Positions 906-20,934 of a DNA stretch of 22,890 bases are shown here, piece by piece (the first letter of the stretch is position 1; each line of letters starts with the position of its first letter). The translations under genes and the position numbers were made by a program. The DNA lies in the IMG/VR virus record IMGVR_UViG_3300025849_000241, positions 1 to 22,890 of that record. The stretch is one strand, 5' to 3'. The notes beneath the pieces were generated by a model that saw only the letters and a program-made list of their open reading frames with translations, had not been told where the DNA came from and ran no database searches. Origin of the DNA: a virus.

Positions 906-2709
906 TTCTTGCTTATCTGCGGCTATCGCTAACGCATTAAGGCCTCCTCCAAAGTTGGAAGTCAGTCAATGGGCTGACAATTACCGACAGCTATCAAGCG
1001 AAAGCTCTGCGGAAGCTGGAAGATGGACGACATCAAGAGCTGAGTATCAACGTGGAATGATGGATTCCGTTTCAGACACGAATATTGAGACAGTTGTGCT
1101 TATGACTGCCGCTCAGATTGGCAAGACAGAGCTGATTAACAATGTTGTCGGTTATCACATCCATCAAGACCCAGCTCCGATGCTTGTTGTGCAGCCAACT
1201 CTTGAGATGGCGCAAACTTGGTCAAAAGACCGTTTATCACCAGCCATCAGGGATACGCCTGTTTTATCTGATAAGATTAGGAATCCAAGGTCGCGCGACA
1301 GTGGTAATACAACTTTGCATAAAGTATTCCCAGGCGGTCATGTCACTGCGTGTGGAGCAAACTCTCCCTCCTCTCTGGCATCTAGGCCATGTCGAATTAT
1401 TCTGTGCGATGAGGTTGATCGCTATCCTTTATCTGCTGGCACTGAGGGTGATCCTGTTTCGCTGGCTAAGAAGAGGTCCGCAACATTTTGGAATCGCAAG
1501 ATTATTATGGTCAGCACGCCAACCGACAAGGGCGCCAGCCGAATTGAGGCGGCGTATGAGGAAAGCGATAAGCGCAGATATTTTGTTCCGTGTCAGGACT
1601 GCGGTGAGCATCAGATATTAAAGTGGGCCAATGTGAAGTGGGAAGAGGGAAAGCCTGCATCGGCTGAATATATCTGCGAGCATTGCGGTAGCTGTTGGAG
1701 CGATGTGAAGCGTTTTGCGGCGATCAGGTATGGCGAATGGCGATCTACGGCTAAAGGTGATGGTAAGACTGCTGGCTTTCACCTTTCGGGCCTTTATTCA
1801 CCTTGGACGCCGATGGAGGATACGGTCAGAGACTTTCTGGCGTCTAAGCGAGACCCAATGCGGCTCAAGACGTGGGTTAACACTTTTTTAGGTGAGACCT
1901 GGGAAGAGCAAGGCGACCGGGTTGATGATATTGACTTGATGGAGCGCCGAGAAGATTGGGGTGATGAGCTTCCGGCAGATGTTCTTATTATGACTGCTGG
2001 CATTGACGTTCAGGATGATCGCTTGGAGGTTGAGGTCGTTGGTTGGGGCAGAGGTGAGGAAAGCTGGTCGATTTCTTACGATACGCTTTATGGAGACCCT
2101 TCAACATCTGAGCTTTGGATTAGGTTAGATAGCTTGTTGCAAAAGACGTTTACGCATCCCTTGCATGGTGAAATGGTGATCCGTTCCTCCTGCATTGACT
2201 CTGGCGGTCATTATACACAGCAGGTTTACAATTATGCGCGGCAAAGGTCTGGCAGGAGGGTATTTGCGATAAAAGGCATCGGCGGTGAGGGGAAGCCTAT
2301 CATTGGTCGGCCAACCAAGAATAACATAGGAAAGATAAACCTTTTCCCAGTGGGTACTGACACTGCCAAGGAATTAGTGTATGCTCGCCTGAAGATGACG
2401 GATGAGGGTGATGGTTACTGCCACTTTCCAGATGATCGAAATGCGGAATATTTCCGTATGTTGACTGCTGAGAAGAAGATCACCAAATACTTTAAGGGGC
2501 GCCCAAAACGCGAGTGGGTTAAGATTAGGCAAAGGAACGAAGCATTGGATTGCAGAGTTTACGCTACCGCCGCATTGGCCGTATTAAACCTGAATATTGA
2601 AGCAGTTTACAAGCAGGCACAAAATAGGGTATTATCCGAACAAACTAAACGTCCGTCTAGGGGTCCAGTAGTACCTAGACGCAGTTCCTTTGTGCATGGG
2701 TACAGATAA
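859..2709 (+). CDS. terL: Terminase large subunit (GpA family)
   Basis: A 616-aa packaging motor ATPase and nuclease, close to lambda gpA (641 aa). It opens with the family hallmark LRPPPKLEVSQWAD near residue 28, then SSAEAGRW. A variant Walker A lies at 84-91 (AAQIGKTE), Walker B at 180-187 (IILCDEVD), and the coupling motif at 217-222 (MVSTPT). Two CxxC pairs (C245/C248 and C273/C276) look like a zinc-binding insert typical of gpA relatives. The nuclease domain has candidate acidic residues D383 (GIDVQDDRLE) and D447 (CIDSGG). The ATG lies inside the terS end, preceded by AGAGG at 848-852 with a 6-base spacer. The stop overlaps the next ATG by one base. All expected motifs are present, so it is probably functional. 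Confidence 0.97.
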   Translation: MNWSDTIKKQQAKKLDSCLSAAIANALRPPPKLEVSQWADNYRQLSSESSAEAGRWTTSRAEYQRGMMDSVSDTNIETVVLMTAAQIGKTELINNVVGYHIHQDPAPMLVVQPTLEMAQTWSKDRLSPAIRDTPVLSDKIRNPRSRDSGNTTLHKVFPGGHVTACGANSPSSLASRPCRIILCDEVDRYPLSAGTEGDPVSLAKKRSATFWNRKIIMVSTPTDKGASRIEAAYEESDKRRYFVPCQDCGEHQILKWANVKWEEGKPASAEYICEHCGSCWSDVKRFAAIRYGEWRSTAKGDGKTAGFHLSGLYSPWTPMEDTVRDFLASKRDPMRLKTWVNTFLGETWEEQGDRVDDIDLMERREDWGDELPADVLIMTAGIDVQDDRLEVEVVGWGRGEESWSISYDTLYGDPSTSELWIRLDSLLQKTFTHPLHGEMVIRSSCIDSGGHYTQQVYNYARQRSGRRVFAIKGIGGEGKPIIGRPTKNNIGKINLFPVGTDTAKELVYARLKMTDEGDGYCHFPDDRNAEYFRMLTAEKKITKYFKGRPKREWVKIRQRNEALDCRVYATAALAVLNLNIEAVYKQAQNRVLSEQTKRPSRGPVVPRRSSFVHGYR

Positions 2710-3296
2710 TGGCTAATCTTTTTGACTCGGATAATGCACCAGAGGGCGAACCTCTCGAAGTTGTTGTAGGTGACTTTCTCCAATGGAAGCGAAGTGATCT
2801 TGTCGCTGACTACCCTTCTGCAACGCATAGTGTTGAATATGTGGCAAGAGTAACGCAGGGCGGAAGTAGCGAAATCAAGTTTGCTGGGGTTGGTAGTGCA
2901 GATTATTATCTGTTCACTGTTGATAGCTCTGTATCTGAGGATTTTGAAGCTGGCTTCTACCATTGGCAGCTTGAGGTCACTGAGACCTCTAGTGGTAATC
3001 GCATTGTTGTGCAGCGCGGTGAGTTTAAGGCTGTGGTTGACCTTGACGTAAACGGCACTGATCCTCGGACGCACTCTGAGGTAATGCTGGACAAGATTGA
3101 AACTATACTTGAAGGCAAAGCTGACAGTGATGTTTCTAATTATAGCATTGCTGGTCGATCTCTAACCAAGATGACTTTTGATGAGTTGATGGTCGCGCGC
3201 GACAGGTATCGTCAAGAGGTCTTAGCTTATCGTAGGAAGCTAAGTATAGAGAGCGGTAAAGCCAGCGGAACAACTGTAAAGGTTAGATTTAGCTAA
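2709..3296 (+). CDS. gpW-like head-tail connector with N-terminal beta domain
   Basis: A 195-aa protein between terL and portal, exactly where lambda has gpW. The C-terminal part (about 120-180) looks like gpW: a helix (EVMLDKIETILEGK), a short beta hairpin with YSIAGRSLTKMT, and a second helix (FDELMVARDRYRQEV). gpW joins the filled head to later connectors. Lambda gpW is only 68 aa. Here about 115 residues of predicted beta sequence precede it (EVVVGDFLQWKRSDL, YYLFTVDSS, GFYHWQLEVTE), resembling Ig-like or BppU-N-type domains. It starts at TAATG, overlapping terL by one base, and ends the same way on the portal. The gpW assignment is by position and pattern; the role of the beta domain is unknown. 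Confidence 0.72.
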   Translation: MANLFDSDNAPEGEPLEVVVGDFLQWKRSDLVADYPSATHSVEYVARVTQGGSSEIKFAGVGSADYYLFTVDSSVSEDFEAGFYHWQLEVTETSSGNRIVVQRGEFKAVVDLDVNGTDPRTHSEVMLDKIETILEGKADSDVSNYSIAGRSLTKMTFDELMVARDRYRQEVLAYRRKLSIESGKASGTTVKVRFS

Positions 3297-4777
3297 TGGG
3301 CATTTTGGACATCTTCAATCGGTCTAAAAAGCCGAAAAGTCGCAGAAACTATGCAGCCGCCAGCAAAGGGCGGCTTTTCGCTGACTTCAACGCAAGTAAT
3401 CGAAGTGCTGATAGTGAAATCTACCCAGTATTGCGCGATTTGCGCAATCGGTCGCGCGACTTGGAGAGAAACAACGAATACATGCGCCGTTATTTGCAGT
3501 TGCTGCGCACGAATGTGGTCGGAGAGGGTGGTATTCGACTACAGATGAAGGCTCGCAATCCAGATGGCGGCATGGACATTGGTGGCAACAATATTGTTGA
3601 GTCTGCCTGGAACGAGTTCTGCCGATACGGTGGCCCGACAGTTGACGGTCAGATGTCTATGATTGACCTGCTAAATCATGTGATAACTGGCGTTGCTAGG
3701 GACGGCGAAGTATTCTTGATGAAGGTTCGCGCGAACTATTTGCGTCAGGGGTATGCTTTGCAGCCCATAGAGCCTGACATGATTGATGAAAGCCACAATG
3801 AGCGGGTCCGTGGCGGCAATCCTATTCGTATGGGTATTGAGATTGATGAGTCCACCCGACGACCAGTTGCTTATCATGTTCTAACGGCTCACCCTGGTGA
3901 TTTCGACTACACTACATTGGCGAATGGTAAGAAGCGCAATCGTGTTCCTGCGGATCGCATGATGCACATCTATCGTCCAGATCGGGCAGATCAGACGCGT
4001 GGCGTTCCTTGGTCAGTTTCCGCTATATCCTCTTTGAAGATGTTACATGGCTACCGCGAGGCTGAATTGGTTGCGGCCCGAGTTGGCGCTGCCAAGATGG
4101 GTTTCTTTACGTCTCCAGCGGGCGATGGCTTTACCGCTGACGATTACGAGGACAACGTAACTCCAATCTATGATGCGGAAGCTGGAACCTTTCATCAGCT
4201 TCCTGCTGGCGTTGACTTCACTGCGTTTGATCCGAGCCACCCTAATTCAGCCTTTGCTGACTTTGAGAAGGCTGTATTGCGTGGGATCGCAGGCGGCTTG
4301 GGTATTAGCTATACGTCTCTGGCGAATGATCTGGAGGGTACTTCATATTCATCTATTCGTCAGGGCGCGCTTGAGGAACGTGATTTCTATCGCACCCTGC
4401 ATCGGTTTATGATTGACCACTTCATTGATCCGTTTTTCCGTGAGTGGCTTGAACATGTAATGGGATTTGGCGTTATTCCGATCTCTGGCACCAATAAGGT
4501 TGCAAAGTTCAGCGCAGGTATTTCTTGGCGGGCGCGTGGCTTCCAGTGGGTTGACCCGCTGAAGGAGATCAATGCGGCTGTTGTTGGCCTGCAAAACGGC
4601 ATTTTGAGCCACACTGACATTGCTTCCAACTATGGCCGAGATGCAGAGGAAACATTTTCGCAGATCAGCCGTGACAAAGAGATGGCCGCTGCTTACAACT
4701 TATCAATGGCTTACGAGCCATTTGGCGATAAGCAGCCTGTCCCAGCGGAGGTTGAGGCAAATGACGAACAAACCTAA
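3296..4777 (+). CDS. Portal protein (lambda gpB family)
   Basis: A 493-aa dodecameric portal that would form the DNA channel at one capsid vertex and dock terminase and connectors. Family signs include an N-terminal basic segment, SRDLERNNEYMRRYLQLLR (about 53-71) followed by NVVGEGG, the DGEVFLMKV block, QPIEPDMID, HIYRPDRADQTRGVPW, and a C-terminal GTSYSSIRQGALEERDFYR block before the crown region. This is the lambda B type (Phage_portal_2), with length close to lambda gpB (533 aa). It overlaps the previous gene by one base (TAATG), and the next gene starts 17 bases before its end. No frame damage is visible. Confidence 0.95.
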   Translation: MGILDIFNRSKKPKSRRNYAAASKGRLFADFNASNRSADSEIYPVLRDLRNRSRDLERNNEYMRRYLQLLRTNVVGEGGIRLQMKARNPDGGMDIGGNNIVESAWNEFCRYGGPTVDGQMSMIDLLNHVITGVARDGEVFLMKVRANYLRQGYALQPIEPDMIDESHNERVRGGNPIRMGIEIDESTRRPVAYHVLTAHPGDFDYTTLANGKKRNRVPADRMMHIYRPDRADQTRGVPWSVSAISSLKMLHGYREAELVAARVGAAKMGFFTSPAGDGFTADDYEDNVTPIYDAEAGTFHQLPAGVDFTAFDPSHPNSAFADFEKAVLRGIAGGLGISYTSLANDLEGTSYSSIRQGALEERDFYRTLHRFMIDHFIDPFFREWLEHVMGFGVIPISGTNKVAKFSAGISWRARGFQWVDPLKEINAAVVGLQNGILSHTDIASNYGRDAEETFSQISRDKEMAAAYNLSMAYEPFGDKQPVPAEVEANDEQT

Positions 4778-7277
4778 TAGTGGCATGGTATCAGAGGCCA
4801 AGAAGGGTTTGGCTTGGCGTAGCGAGTATGGTCGCGGCGGGACTGAGGTTGGCATTGCACGGGCGCGGGACATTTCAAATAGTAAGAACTTGTCTGATGA
4901 TACAGTCAAGCGAATGTATTCTTTTTTCAGCCGACATGAGGTTGATAAGAAGGCTGATGGATTTCGCCCAGGTGAAGATGGTTATCCGTCAAACGGTAGA
5001 ATTGCTTGGGCTTTATGGGGTGGCGACAGCGGCTTTTCTTGGTCGCGCAAGTTAGCTGCTAAAATGGAAAAGGAACGCTCTATGGAAGATTTGGCAAAAT
5101 CTGATATACTGCCCGAAACTACAGAGGGCGAAGAAATGGAAACTGAAGTTAGGGCAGAGCCAGATGGCTTGAGTGTTGGCGATTACGTCCAGTGGGATAG
5201 CTCTGGCGGTTCAGCTTATGGGCGCATAGATCGCATAGAGCGTGACGGCTCAATAAACGTGCCAGACAGTGATTTCACTGTGAATGGTGATGCGGATGAT
5301 CCAGCGGCTTTGATTGAAGTGTACCGCGAAGGCGAGGATGGCTATGAAGCCTCTAGCCGGATGGTGGGGCATCGGTTCTCCACGCTAACTAAAGTGGCTG
5401 AACGTGGTTACAAAGACAAAGAGCGTCACATTGTAAACATTGAGGAAACCGAAAGCACAATCGTCATTACATACGCAAAAGATGACGAAGAGACGACTGA
5501 AGAGCGTTTTGAGCGTGAAGAGATGAAGACGCGCGGCATGATGTTCGACAATAAGGTTGTAAATGAAGAAATGCGGACGGTTCAGATAGCTGTATCCAGC
5601 GAAGAACCTGTTGAGCGTAGCTTTGGAACAGAAATATTAGATCACAATGATCGCAGCATTGACCTTAGCTTTGCTCGATCAGGTACGATGCCTTTGTTGC
5701 TGGATCACGATCCACGTCAGCAGATTGGCGTTGTGGAAAACGTAGACCTTGATGGCTCGGCGCGTAGATTGCGCGCGACAGTTCGTTTCGGAAGGAATGG
5801 GCTTGCCAAAGAGGTCTTCGATGATGTTGTTGATGGTATCAGAAGCAACATTTCGGTTGGCTATCATGTCAACTCAATGGTCGAGGACGGCGAGGCAAGC
5901 TACCGCGTCAATAATTGGCTACCAATGGAAGTTTCGGTTGTATCCATCCCCGCTGACAGGACAGTCGGTGTCGGACGTTCCGCAGCAGAAGCGCCACCCG
6001 CAAAACCCAAAACTGAAACTCGTAATGAGGTAAAGACTATGACAGAAGAAGTCAAAGTTGACGTAGAGGCGGTTCGCGCAGACGCAGCTCGCGCCGCAGC
6101 TAAAGATACAGCAGAAATGTACCGTTTAGCAGCAAAACACAGCAAACGTGACATGGCAGATAAAGCGGTTGCAGAAGGCCGCACACTTGCAGAGTTCCGT
6201 GGTGAACTTTTGGAAGCAATCGGAAATCAGCCACTTGATACGCAAGAGATTGGCCTTACAAAAAGCGAAGTTCGTGACTTCTCTTTGATGAAGGCAGTTC
6301 GTGCGATGGCAAACCCAACTGACCGCAACGCCCAGCGCGATGCAGAGTTTGAGTTTGAAGCATCACGCGAAGCGGCACAGCGTGCAGGCATTGACCCACA
6401 AGGTCTATATTTGCCACACGACGTTTTGCGCTCTTGGAACCAACGTGATCTGAACACATCGAATGACAGCGCATTGGTTGCAGAAGCATACCGTGGCGGT
6501 GATTTCATTGATGTACTTCGCAACGCATCATCCGTGATGCAAGCTGGTGCAACAATGCTGACAGGTCTTTCCGGCGACGTAAAAATCCCGAAAAAGACTG
6601 CTGCTTCATCTGGTGCATGGATTGCAACTGAAGGTGGCGCGTCTACTGAAAGCGAGCCAACATTCGGTCAGGTAACAATGTCACCTAAGACTGTTGGTGC
6701 GTTCACAGACATCACTCGTTTGATGATGATGCAGTCCAGCTTGGACATCGAGAGCCTTGTGCGTAATGACCTTTCAACAGGCATCGCATTGGCTATCGAC
6801 AACGGTGCGCTTCAAGGTTCAGGTTCCTCTGGTCAGCCAACAGGTATCAAGAACACATCAGGCATTAACGCTCCGACTTCTTTCGCCGCAGCTAACCCAA
6901 CTTTTGCTGAAGTTGTTGCGATGGAAACTGCGGTTGCAGAAGATAATGCTTTGATGGGCAACTTGGCCTATATCCTGCCAGCGTCTATGCTGGGTGCGTT
7001 GAAAACAACTGCAAAAGACACTGGCTCCGGCTTGTTTGTTGCAGATGGCAACCAGCTCAACGGTTATAATGCAATCGTATCAAATCAGGTTACTGCTGGT
7101 GATCTGTACTTTGGTAACTTTGCTGACTTGTTGATTGGTATGTATGGCGGCTTGGACATCACAGTTGATCCATACACAGCATCAACATCCGGCACCGTTC
7201 GTATTGTTGCATTGCAAACTTGTGACGTAGCAGTACGTCACGCAGTGAGCTTCGCACTTAATAACGACGGCGCATAA
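4761..7277 (+). CDS. Fused prohead protease and major capsid protein
   Basis: An 838-aa polyprotein. Residues 1-105 form a conserved phage domain (KKGLAWRSEYGRGGTEVG, YPSNGRIAWALWGGD). Residues 137-212 look like a small Tudor/DUF2945-like barrel (VGDYVQWDSSGG to GHRFSTLTKV). Residues 255-405 are an HK97-type (U35) prohead protease with candidate catalytic H316 (LLLDHDP) and S365 (SNISVGYHV), and conserved E390 and D399. About 427-495 is a charged, helix-rich scaffold/delta-like segment, and about 498-838 is an HK97-fold major capsid protein (TKSEVRDFSLMKAVRAM, LSGDVKIPKK, SPKTVGAFTDITRLMMMQSS, LQGSGSSGQPTGI, YILPASML). The ATG at 4761 has GCGGAGG at 4745-4751. The frame is open back to 4620 but that part lies inside the portal. 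Protease-capsid fusions are known in other phages. The shell must be freed by cleavage near 427-500 or made separately from 6039. Confidence 0.93.
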   Translation: MTNKPNSGMVSEAKKGLAWRSEYGRGGTEVGIARARDISNSKNLSDDTVKRMYSFFSRHEVDKKADGFRPGEDGYPSNGRIAWALWGGDSGFSWSRKLAAKMEKERSMEDLAKSDILPETTEGEEMETEVRAEPDGLSVGDYVQWDSSGGSAYGRIDRIERDGSINVPDSDFTVNGDADDPAALIEVYREGEDGYEASSRMVGHRFSTLTKVAERGYKDKERHIVNIEETESTIVITYAKDDEETTEERFEREEMKTRGMMFDNKVVNEEMRTVQIAVSSEEPVERSFGTEILDHNDRSIDLSFARSGTMPLLLDHDPRQQIGVVENVDLDGSARRLRATVRFGRNGLAKEVFDDVVDGIRSNISVGYHVNSMVEDGEASYRVNNWLPMEVSVVSIPADRTVGVGRSAAEAPPAKPKTETRNEVKTMTEEVKVDVEAVRADAARAAAKDTAEMYRLAAKHSKRDMADKAVAEGRTLAEFRGELLEAIGNQPLDTQEIGLTKSEVRDFSLMKAVRAMANPTDRNAQRDAEFEFEASREAAQRAGIDPQGLYLPHDVLRSWNQRDLNTSNDSALVAEAYRGGDFIDVLRNASSVMQAGATMLTGLSGDVKIPKKTAASSGAWIATEGGASTESEPTFGQVTMSPKTVGAFTDITRLMMMQSSLDIESLVRNDLSTGIALAIDNGALQGSGSSGQPTGIKNTSGINAPTSFAAANPTFAEVVAMETAVAEDNALMGNLAYILPASMLGALKTTAKDTGSGLFVADGNQLNGYNAIVSNQVTAGDLYFGNFADLLIGMYGGLDITVDPYTASTSGTVRIVALQTCDVAVRHAVSFALNNDGA
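6039..7277 (+). CDS. Possible separate major capsid protein from internal start
   Basis: An in-frame ATG at 6039 (residue 427 of the fusion) is preceded by GAGGTAA (6027-6033) with 5 bases between, a good ribosome-binding site. It opens exactly at the helix-rich delta region and would yield 412 aa, a normal size for an HK97-type capsid protein with its scaffold domain (HK97 gp5 is 385 aa). From here to the stop all 20 arginines I counted use CGT or CGC, whereas 4761-6038 freely uses AGA, AGG, CGA and CGG. This suggests selection for high expression restricted to this part. The separate product is inference; the fused product would also be made from 4761. Confidence 0.5.
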   Translation: MTEEVKVDVEAVRADAARAAAKDTAEMYRLAAKHSKRDMADKAVAEGRTLAEFRGELLEAIGNQPLDTQEIGLTKSEVRDFSLMKAVRAMANPTDRNAQRDAEFEFEASREAAQRAGIDPQGLYLPHDVLRSWNQRDLNTSNDSALVAEAYRGGDFIDVLRNASSVMQAGATMLTGLSGDVKIPKKTAASSGAWIATEGGASTESEPTFGQVTMSPKTVGAFTDITRLMMMQSSLDIESLVRNDLSTGIALAIDNGALQGSGSSGQPTGIKNTSGINAPTSFAAANPTFAEVVAMETAVAEDNALMGNLAYILPASMLGALKTTAKDTGSGLFVADGNQLNGYNAIVSNQVTAGDLYFGNFADLLIGMYGGLDITVDPYTASTSGTVRIVALQTCDVAVRHAVSFALNNDGA

Positions 7278-7286
7278 TGCTTACTT

Positions 7287-7321
7287 GGGGCGGCTTAAAG
7301 GCCGCCCCCTCTAACGGGGGG
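7287..7321 (+). promoter_or_regulatory. Overlapping hairpins between capsid gene and next ribosome site
   Basis: GGGGCGGC (7287-7294) and GCCGCCCC (7301-7308) form a perfect 8-bp stem with loop TTAAAG. The 3' arm also offers CCCCC (7305-7309), which can pair with GGGGG inside 7316-7321, the purine run that would be the ribosome-binding site of the gene at 7328. The two hairpins exclude one another. No T-run follows, so simple intrinsic termination is unlikely. An mRNA-end stabiliser, pausing site or translation switch separating abundant capsid synthesis from connector synthesis is plausible but inferred. Confidence 0.55.
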
Positions 7322-19554: not shown

Positions 19555-20934
19555 ATGTCTAACTTTAAGAAACTTATGCTGGGTGCAGCAGTAGGAATCC
19601 CCGACCAAACGTACTGGCTCGTTATCAACGATAATACTGAGTTTACTAGCGGTGGAAATGGTATAACCTCTGATAATGACCAGAATGTCTATACTTCCGG
19701 CACATGGTACGATGGCAGTGGCAGCCAAGCGTTTGTTGAATCCTATGACCTAGACGGCGCACAACGATGGAGTAAATCTTTTGGCGGTTCATTGGCTGAA
19801 GGTTTCAATAGCATAGTATCAGACGGAACTGATATATACTTTCATGGATACTTACGAGGTGGGCTTCCCGGTGCTGGTACCAATAATGAGAATGGCGTTA
19901 TAAAAATAAATGCGTCAGGAGCAAGCCAGTGGCAAAAAATCTTTGGCGCAAACGCTGGAAATGGTAATTCATTGACCGTTGGTGCTACTAATGGCAAATC
20001 AAATATAATTGCTGGCGGAAATCAATACACAGTTCAAACTCATGCTACTAGTAACGCTATCTTTGTTACAAAGTACAATACGTCTGGCACACAACAGTTT
20101 AAATATAAAATAACCGGGAATTATGATGTAACGGCTCAGGCTATTCAAGTAGATAGCTCTGGTAATATGTACATTTGTGGACGTATTAAGGATACCTCAG
20201 CCGGTACGAATTATAACGGGTACATAGTAAAAACAAATTCGTCTGGTGTTGTCCAATGGACTCACATGCATGGCGGGACGGGCTATGATCTATGCGAAGA
20301 TATACTGATTAGTGGTTCTGATTTATATGCATCAGGTCGAACATCATCGAGCGGAAATGTATGCCGGGTGATGAAGCTAAACACATCTAATGGTAGCGTT
20401 ACATGGCAGAAAAAGATGTACCAGTCTACCTCCTTCGTGACATCTGGACACTCGCTACAAATGGACAGCACAGGCGCATTGTATGTTCTCTGTCTTGAGA
20501 CAAATTACAAATCACTTATAATTAAATTAGATAGTAGCAATGGAAACACTACTTGGGCTAGACGTTTTAGAGACGGTAATGCAGATCAGTTACGAAAGTC
20601 ATTACACAGGCTTGCTTTTGATAAGTATGATAATATGCTAATGTCAGGTTCGTCAATTTCGTACAGTTCAACTTACTCTCAACACAGAGGTCAATTGATT
20701 TGCAAACTACCTAATGACGGTACAGGAACAGGAACTTATACCTTTCCCTCTCCATTCTGGGCGATTGTTACATATGAGTCTGTTTCTTTGACTAATACCA
20801 CCTTGGGTGCTGACGTTTCGAGTACATCTGTAAGTTGGAGTACAACAACTCCAAGCCTTACAGAGCAAAACCCCAATCTATCATTTTCAAACACGGGATT
20901 TTCTCGTTCTATACAAACAGTAACGGCAGGATAA
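19555..20934 (+). CDS. Seven-bladed beta-propeller-like tail protein
   Basis: A 459-aa protein after the long fibre. A short N-terminus (MSNFKKLMLGAAVG) is followed by seven similar segments of about 40-52 residues at roughly 33-78, 83-131, 137-188, 193-241, 246-289, 299-339 and 350-386. Each has the form I-x-x-D-x-x-x-N-x-Y-x-x-G, a variable loop, then a strand with a K(Y/L)(N/D)xxG turn and an aromatic near the end (W72, W126, F182, W235, W284, W334). The pattern matches SBBP-type propeller repeats. A C-terminal beta tail (395-459, SVSWSTTTPSLTEQNP) follows. Propellers at tail tips usually bind surface sugars or proteins, so receptor binding is a fair inference. AAGGA lies 7 bases upstream. 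No catalytic residues are recognised. Confidence 0.78.
   Translation: MSNFKKLMLGAAVGIPDQTYWLVINDNTEFTSGGNGITSDNDQNVYTSGTWYDGSGSQAFVESYDLDGAQRWSKSFGGSLAEGFNSIVSDGTDIYFHGYLRGGLPGAGTNNENGVIKINASGASQWQKIFGANAGNGNSLTVGATNGKSNIIAGGNQYTVQTHATSNAIFVTKYNTSGTQQFKYKITGNYDVTAQAIQVDSSGNMYICGRIKDTSAGTNYNGYIVKTNSSGVVQWTHMHGGTGYDLCEDILISGSDLYASGRTSSSGNVCRVMKLNTSNGSVTWQKKMYQSTSFVTSGHSLQMDSTGALYVLCLETNYKSLIIKLDSSNGNTTWARRFRDGNADQLRKSLHRLAFDKYDNMLMSGSSISYSSTYSQHRGQLICKLPNDGTGTGTYTFPSPFWAIVTYESVSLTNTTLGADVSSTSVSWSTTTPSLTEQNPNLSFSNTGFSRSIQTVTAG

What the first reader, a model, noticed from the sequence alone, without database searches (positions are those of the whole stretch)
6020..7277. Internal ribosome site and codon-use switch inside the protease-capsid fusion
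GAGGTAA at 6027-6033 stands 5 bases before an in-frame ATG at 6039, exactly at the scaffold/capsid boundary. All 20 arginine codons after this point are CGT/CGC, while AGA, AGG, CGA and CGG are frequent before it. Together these suggest one reading frame makes a little protease-capsid fusion and much separate capsid protein, a nested-gene logic like lambda C/Nu3.
Basis: partly seen in the sequence, partly recalled or inferred. Interest (0 to 1): 0.6.

Follow-up and report, generated by a model that had tools for sequence, protein, structure and literature searches.

The report
Nested capsid gene inside protease-capsid fusion
A marine phage gene that joins the head protease and the shell protein in one reading frame carries a second start signal at the junction, conserved across many phage lineages, so one gene very probably makes a few protease-shell fusions and many plain shell proteins.

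Summary
GAGGTAA (6027-6033) and an in-frame ATG (6039, codon 427) lie inside the 838-codon ORF 4761-7277; Arg codons are CGY in 20/20 after it and 23/37 before. The site is at the protease/delta junction, not at the scaffold/capsid boundary: the mature capsid starts about 142 residues further on. Among 269 fused protease-capsid ORFs (54 clusters), no locus splits the two domains. In 51 clusters the linker carries an in-frame ATG; the other three carry GTG at the homologous codon. Near relatives and most proteobacterial phages have a Shine-Dalgarno (SD) match upstream; cyanophages do not. An a priori rare-codon set drops from about 20-25% to 5-7% at residue 431 (95% range 414-444) across 34 clusters. 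A single translation product should show no such step. Best explanation: internal initiation makes an excess of an HK97-gp5-like delta-capsid precursor (43 kDa), while upstream initiation makes a minority protease-capsid fusion (91 kDa). It works like lambda C/Nu3 but is not a member of that system. Fusions of this kind are named in databases; I found no report of the nested start in the open-licence library. No expression data were available. Synonymous-site evidence at the SD alone is modest.

The parts
4747..4751 (+). SD (GGAGG) of the upstream start, inside the portal gene
   Evidence: sequence; anti-SD energy at the 4761 start -10.7
4761..7277 (+). Fused ORF, 838 aa, 90.8 kDa: N-terminal domain, tudor-like domain, S78 prohead protease, linker, delta domain, HK97-fold major capsid
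5673..5963 (+). Prohead protease domain (Peptidase_S78; residues 305-401), with H316 and S365 invariant in 26 diverse relatives
5979..6059 (+). Variable linker, residues 407-433, predicted disordered (pLDDT < 50)
6027..6033 (+). Internal Shine-Dalgarno GAGGTAA
6039..6041 (+). Internal start codon ATG (codon 427), present in all 87 near relatives
6039..7277 (+). Nested cistron for the delta-capsid precursor (412 aa, 43.3 kDa), low in rare codons; matches the standalone HK97 MCP model TIGR01554 almost from its first position
6039..6464 (+). Delta (scaffold-like) domain, about residues 427-568, mostly helical in the model; end inferred from 8GTA
6465..7274 (+). Mature major capsid protein, about residues 569-838 (27.5 kDa)
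   Evidence: PDB 8GTA aligns to 571-830; Phage_capsid 581-832
7287..7308 (+). Hairpin GGGGCGGC-TTAAAG-GCCGCCCC just after the capsid stop; stem covaries in relatives

Best explanation
One reading frame holds two nested cistrons. Ribosomes that start at 4761 make a minor long protein (N-terminal domains + S78 protease + delta + capsid). Ribosomes that start at the internal SD/ATG at 6027-6041 make a major short protein (delta + capsid, equivalent to HK97 gp5). The short form builds the prohead; a few long forms co-assemble through their capsid domain and so carry the protease inside; the protease then removes the delta domains and itself. Shown here: conserved start codon, SD in most lineages, step in codon use at the start, domain positions. 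Inferred: actual initiation at 6039, the ratio of the two products, co-assembly and release of the protease.
For: Start codon: ATG in all 87 near relatives although the linker around it varies. In 54 clusters (75% identity) spanning proteobacterial, cyanobacterial and gut phages, 51 have an in-frame ATG in the linker (in a few the first ATG listed is not the homologous one). The remaining three clusters belong to an S-LBS1-like cyanophage clade in which all 15 members have GTG, also an initiator, at the homologous codon; only 2 of 28 fully conserved Val columns in that clade keep one codon, both GTG, this one and one 10 alignment columns downstream. SD: mean energy -8.1 against -2.0 for 1257 other in-frame ATGs; 96% of 50 unique sites at or below -5 against 18%. 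The SD sits in different frames and peptides: AAG GAG (KE), CAA AGG AGT (QRS), AAA GGA GAG (KGE), AAT GAG GTA (NEV). At linker position 423 the codon agrees in 141/141 same-residue pairs, 84 expected. Codon step: changepoint at residue 431, bootstrap 414-444; pre > post rare fraction in all 49 sequences tested. Conservation does not explain it: protease 0.66-0.77 identity with 19-28% rare codons, delta 0.61-0.63 with 6-7%. TIGR01554 (standalone MCP) matches 421-831 from profile position 5. No promoter-like site was found between 4700 and 6039.
Against: No expression or proteomic data. S-CBS1/3 and S-LBS1-like cyanophages lack an SD; MQ-4 and FoX1 have weak ones (-2.7, -3.5). With the peptide held fixed, synonymous resampling gives a median P of 0.26 per sequence; combined P = 4e-4 is over non-independent sequences, so the SD is only modestly better than the peptide alone would give. 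In wider 75-codon linker windows the SD excess over background is about twofold. The low mRNA structure upstream is explained by base composition. The codon step persists in SD-less cyanophages, so it is not proof of SD-led initiation; it could in principle reflect an internal transcript.
Confidence: 0.85

Rival explanations
1. The gene is translated only as the full fusion, and capsid subunits are freed by self-cleavage near residue 427 and at about 569 (polyprotein model). The conserved Met would be part of a cleavage site or chance.
For: The protease keeps invariant H316 and S365; the mature capsid start at about 569 must come from cleavage. Fusions are annotated as one protein.
Against: A single product gives no reason for the rare-codon step at 431. 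Residues around 427 vary freely while the codon is ATG or GTG. It would put one 47.5 kDa N-terminal part in the prohead for each of about 415 subunits (copy number for R4C from PMC10276861).
Confidence: 0.08
2. Protease and capsid were once separate genes; the fusion is recent, and the ATG, SD and codon step are unselected relics.
For: Separate protease and MCP genes exist in a distant phage, FP_Epona; the junction looks like a former gene start.
Against: All 269 ORFs with both domains are fused and no locus has them split, in lineages down to about 35% identity, so the fusion is old; relics would have decayed. The SD persists in different frames.
Confidence: 0.03
3. A separate internal transcript starting upstream of 6039 supplies extra capsid mRNA, with the SD used on that transcript.
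For: Would also explain the codon step. A stable hairpin follows the capsid stop in most relatives, so the capsid segment may be a distinct mRNA unit.
Against: No sigma-70-like match in 4700-6039; three matches in the region in all, 2.9 expected by chance, all downstream. Phage or host factors with other promoters are not covered. Not exclusive of the best explanation.
Confidence: 0.1

Closest known systems
Phage lambda C/Nu3 (also Mu I/Z and herpesvirus UL26/UL26.5), from general knowledge
   Same: A protease-scaffold ORF with a nested in-frame gene for the abundant product, starting at the protease/scaffold boundary
   Different: Here the nested product also carries the major capsid protein. 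The protease is S78 (HK97 gp4 type), whereas lambda C is of the S49 type (general knowledge). Herpesviruses use a separate transcript.
HK97 gp4 protease / gp5 capsid
   Same: Same S78 protease, delta domain and capsid fold; the nested product would equal the gp5 precursor
   Different: In HK97 the two are separate genes with separate starts
Prohead protease/MCP fusions (PHROG 617 and 4523, NCBIfam NF045541; phages ep3, VP882, phiHAP-1, R4C, S-CBS1; unrelated Arthrobacter AM/AU/AN and Rhodococcus RRH1)
   Same: Same gene architecture; homologous for PHROG 617
   Different: Described in PMC5513430 as 'apparent fusion' of functions; no nested start is mentioned in the passages read or in the annotations retrieved

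Membership tests
Protease-MCP fusion family (PHROG 617) | Profile match over protease and capsid | tested here: met
   phrog_617 E 6e-148 over residues 259-834
Protease-MCP fusion family (PHROG 617) | Single uninterrupted ORF in relatives | tested here: met
   269 fused ORFs, no locus with both domains unfused; one contig (L049) has an in-frame stop within the protease part
NCBIfam NF045541 scaf_prot_MCP2 | Score above curated cut-off (525 bits) | tested here: not met
   147.7 bits, matching residues 267-513 only
HK97-type MCP with delta domain (TIGR01554) | Profile match of the nested product from near its start | tested here: met
   E 1.8e-32, residues 421-831 to profile 5-380 of 385, above cut-off
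HK97-type MCP with delta domain (TIGR01554) | Delta domain removed in the virion | tested here: inconclusive
   R4C virion chain in PDB 8GTA is 268 aa and aligns from residue 571; not measured for this phage
Lambda C/Nu3-type nested gene | In-frame internal start at protease/scaffold boundary | tested here: met
   (sequence level only)
Lambda C/Nu3-type nested gene | S49 (ClpP-like) protease and separate capsid gene | tested here: not met
   S78 protease and capsid in the same ORF
Lambda C/Nu3-type nested gene | Two protein products observed | not testable with these tools
   no expression data

The most novel reading that the evidence does not exclude
Across the protease-capsid fusion phages (at least 54 lineages here) the capsid is a hidden cistron, bounded by an internal start and in most lineages a 3' hairpin. 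The long form is not a precursor of capsid but a self-targeting protease: a minority shell subunit that delivers the protease into the prohead by its own capsid domain, with the dose set by the ratio of the two starts.
Probability: 0.55. Interest if true: 0.65.

Novelty: new variant of a known kind. Interest (0 to 1): 0.5.

Why it matters
It resolves a stoichiometry puzzle: a shell needs hundreds of capsid proteins (415 in R4C) but probably few proteases, yet these phages fuse the two in one ORF. It means the annotated 'major capsid protein' in these records is likely two proteins, that the annotated start is wrong for the abundant one, and that codon-use steps inside ORFs can expose hidden cistrons in metagenomic phages. 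It also gives a simple route for protease delivery into proheads that can be tested in a single plasmid.

Tried and rejected
Synonymous resampling with the peptide fixed: weak per sequence. First synonymous-conservation scan peaked at codons 410-421 but was biased, because variable columns compare only close pairs; with pair-specific expectations the linker still ranks near the top (ranks 2-5 of the 9-codon windows) but so do codons 366-374 and 113-125, so it is not decisive. Low mRNA structure at -40..+5 is real but explained by A/C-rich composition. No internal promoter-like site upstream of the ATG. All ten literature searches found no report of an internal start in such fusions; the library lacks most subscription papers, and the DOI tried for the phiHAP-1 paper was not held. 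RRH1, an unrelated fusion (best match PHROG 2263), has an ATG at the junction (-5.7) but no codon step with this rare set; other ATGs in its protease part score as well, so it is only suggestive. The AlphaFold model is of low overall confidence (pTM 0.32) and was used only for the disordered linker and helical delta domain.

Full report
What is in the sequence. ORF 4761-7277 (838 codons) follows terminase, a head-tail joining gene and portal and overlaps the portal gene by 17 bases. Its product has an N-terminal domain (PHROG 2859), a tudor-like domain, an S78 prohead protease (Pfam 305-401), a linker, and an HK97-fold capsid (581-832). GAGGTAA at 6027-6033 stands 5 nt before an in-frame ATG at 6039 (codon 427). 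Arg codons are 20/20 CGY after it and 23/37 before (Fisher P = 0.001).

Where the boundary lies. The virion capsid protein of roseophage R4C (PDB 8GTA, 268 residues) aligns from residue 571. The standalone MCP model TIGR01554 matches from residue 421 at profile position 5. The AlphaFold model, of low overall confidence, has a disordered linker at 407-433 and helices from 435. The ATG therefore sits at the protease/delta junction, and the nested ORF corresponds to a complete HK97-gp5-like precursor of 43.3 kDa, with a mature form of about 27.5 kDa.

Conservation of the start. In 87 near relatives the Met is invariant while the linker around it ranges from EAPPAKPKTETRNEV to DDDLQHRTPNPTPQKEA. 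The SD is kept in all of these except the two cyanophages, and in different reading frames (CAA AGG AGT in CRP-823, AAA GGA GAG in L020, AAG GAG in most). Its mean energy is -8.1 against -2.0 for other in-frame ATGs; it is the strongest in-frame site in more than half of the unique sequences. In isolates of other lineages (ep3, KA2-1, Arya, Persinger, PPpW-3, R4C, RcCronus, VP882, phiHAP-1 and others) an ATG with an SD stands at the same junction, more weakly in Mica, Mano and Alexa (-4.0 to -4.6) and weakest in MQ-4 and FoX1. Of 54 clusters, 51 have an in-frame ATG in the linker. The other three, S-LBS1-like cyanophages, have GTG at the homologous codon in 15 of 15 sequences, preceded by C/A-rich leaders with almost no G. 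Among 28 fully conserved Val columns in that clade only this one and one 10 alignment columns downstream keep a single codon. The lack of an SD there is consistent with lesser SD use in cyanobacteria (general knowledge).

Codon step. With rare codons chosen beforehand, the fraction among Arg, Ile, Gly and Leu codons is 18-28% in every segment before residue 427 and 4-7% in every segment after it across 34 clusters. The best changepoint is residue 431 (bootstrap 414-444), 86 log units better than residue 561. The window itself goes from 33/111 to 3/107, and the gene after the capsid returns to 8/21. Conservation does not account for it: the protease domain is as conserved as or more conserved than the delta domain but rich in rare codons. 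Since a single chain is translated at one rate along its length, the step indicates that the part after 427 is translated more often. It is also present in cyanophages without SD, so it supports internal expression but not specifically SD-led initiation.

What is weak. If the peptide is held fixed, the SD is only modestly better than synonymous alternatives (median P 0.26), partly because Lys-Glu is easily encoded AAG GAG. The linker ranks high in synonymous conservation after correction for relatedness, but other regions do too. The low structure upstream follows from composition. There are no protein or RNA data. One of the six peptide patterns used to collect the near relatives (NEVKTMTE) spans the site itself, a slight bias; the relatives with other linker peptides and the wider families were collected with other patterns or by protein search, though one pattern (IEKEETAM) also spans the site.

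A second element. Directly after the capsid stop lies a hairpin, GGGGCGGC-TTAAAG-GCCGCCCC (7287-7308). Stable hairpins of different sequence occur there in most relatives, and 4 of 7 predicted pairs show changes on both sides in 12 relatives. Two GenBank records (Mica, Mano) annotate a terminator there. In some cyanophages the next gene follows directly instead. It may end or protect the capsid mRNA; this was not tested.

Mechanism. I infer that the internal start makes the bulk of delta-capsid and the upstream start a minority of fusions that carry the protease into the prohead. R4C has 415 capsid subunits per head (PMC10276861); one 47.5 kDa N-terminal part per subunit would be about 20 MDa inside the shell. 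A single metagenomic contig, L049, has an in-frame stop in the protease part with the capsid part intact; if real, it could make capsid only from the internal start.

Relation to the known. Fusions are known and named (PHROG 617, NF045541; PMC5513430 for unrelated Arthrobacter phages). The nested logic is that of lambda C/Nu3, but the protease family differs and the nested product includes the capsid, so it works like C/Nu3 without being a member. I found no report of the nested start, with the limit that most subscription papers could not be searched.

Noticed in passing
window 7287-7308: Perfect 8-bp hairpin just after the capsid stop; stem covaries among relatives and hairpins recur at this place in most fused-gene phages, some with U-runs.
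   Followed up: partly
L049:4852-4854: In-frame TAG inside the protease domain of an otherwise intact fused gene with capsid and internal start kept; could be a natural nonsense variant or a sequencing error.
   Followed up: partly
L084 (CRP-823) 1983-2699 and 2659-4911: The N-terminal domain is annotated as a separate CDS from protease-capsid in CRP-823, while CRP-821 has one CDS; frameshift or sequencing difference.
   Followed up: no
window 4761-5550 and relatives: The part before the protease is modular: in relatives the stretch between residues ~109 and ~260 varies greatly in length, and it is missing in many other fused families.
   Followed up: no
window codons 366-374 (about 5856-5882): Second patch of high synonymous conservation within the protease part, unexplained.
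   Followed up: no
window 19555-20934: Product matches the SBBP beta-propeller lipoprotein model NF047494 (E 9e-18, far below cut-off); unusual for a phage late gene.
   Followed up: no
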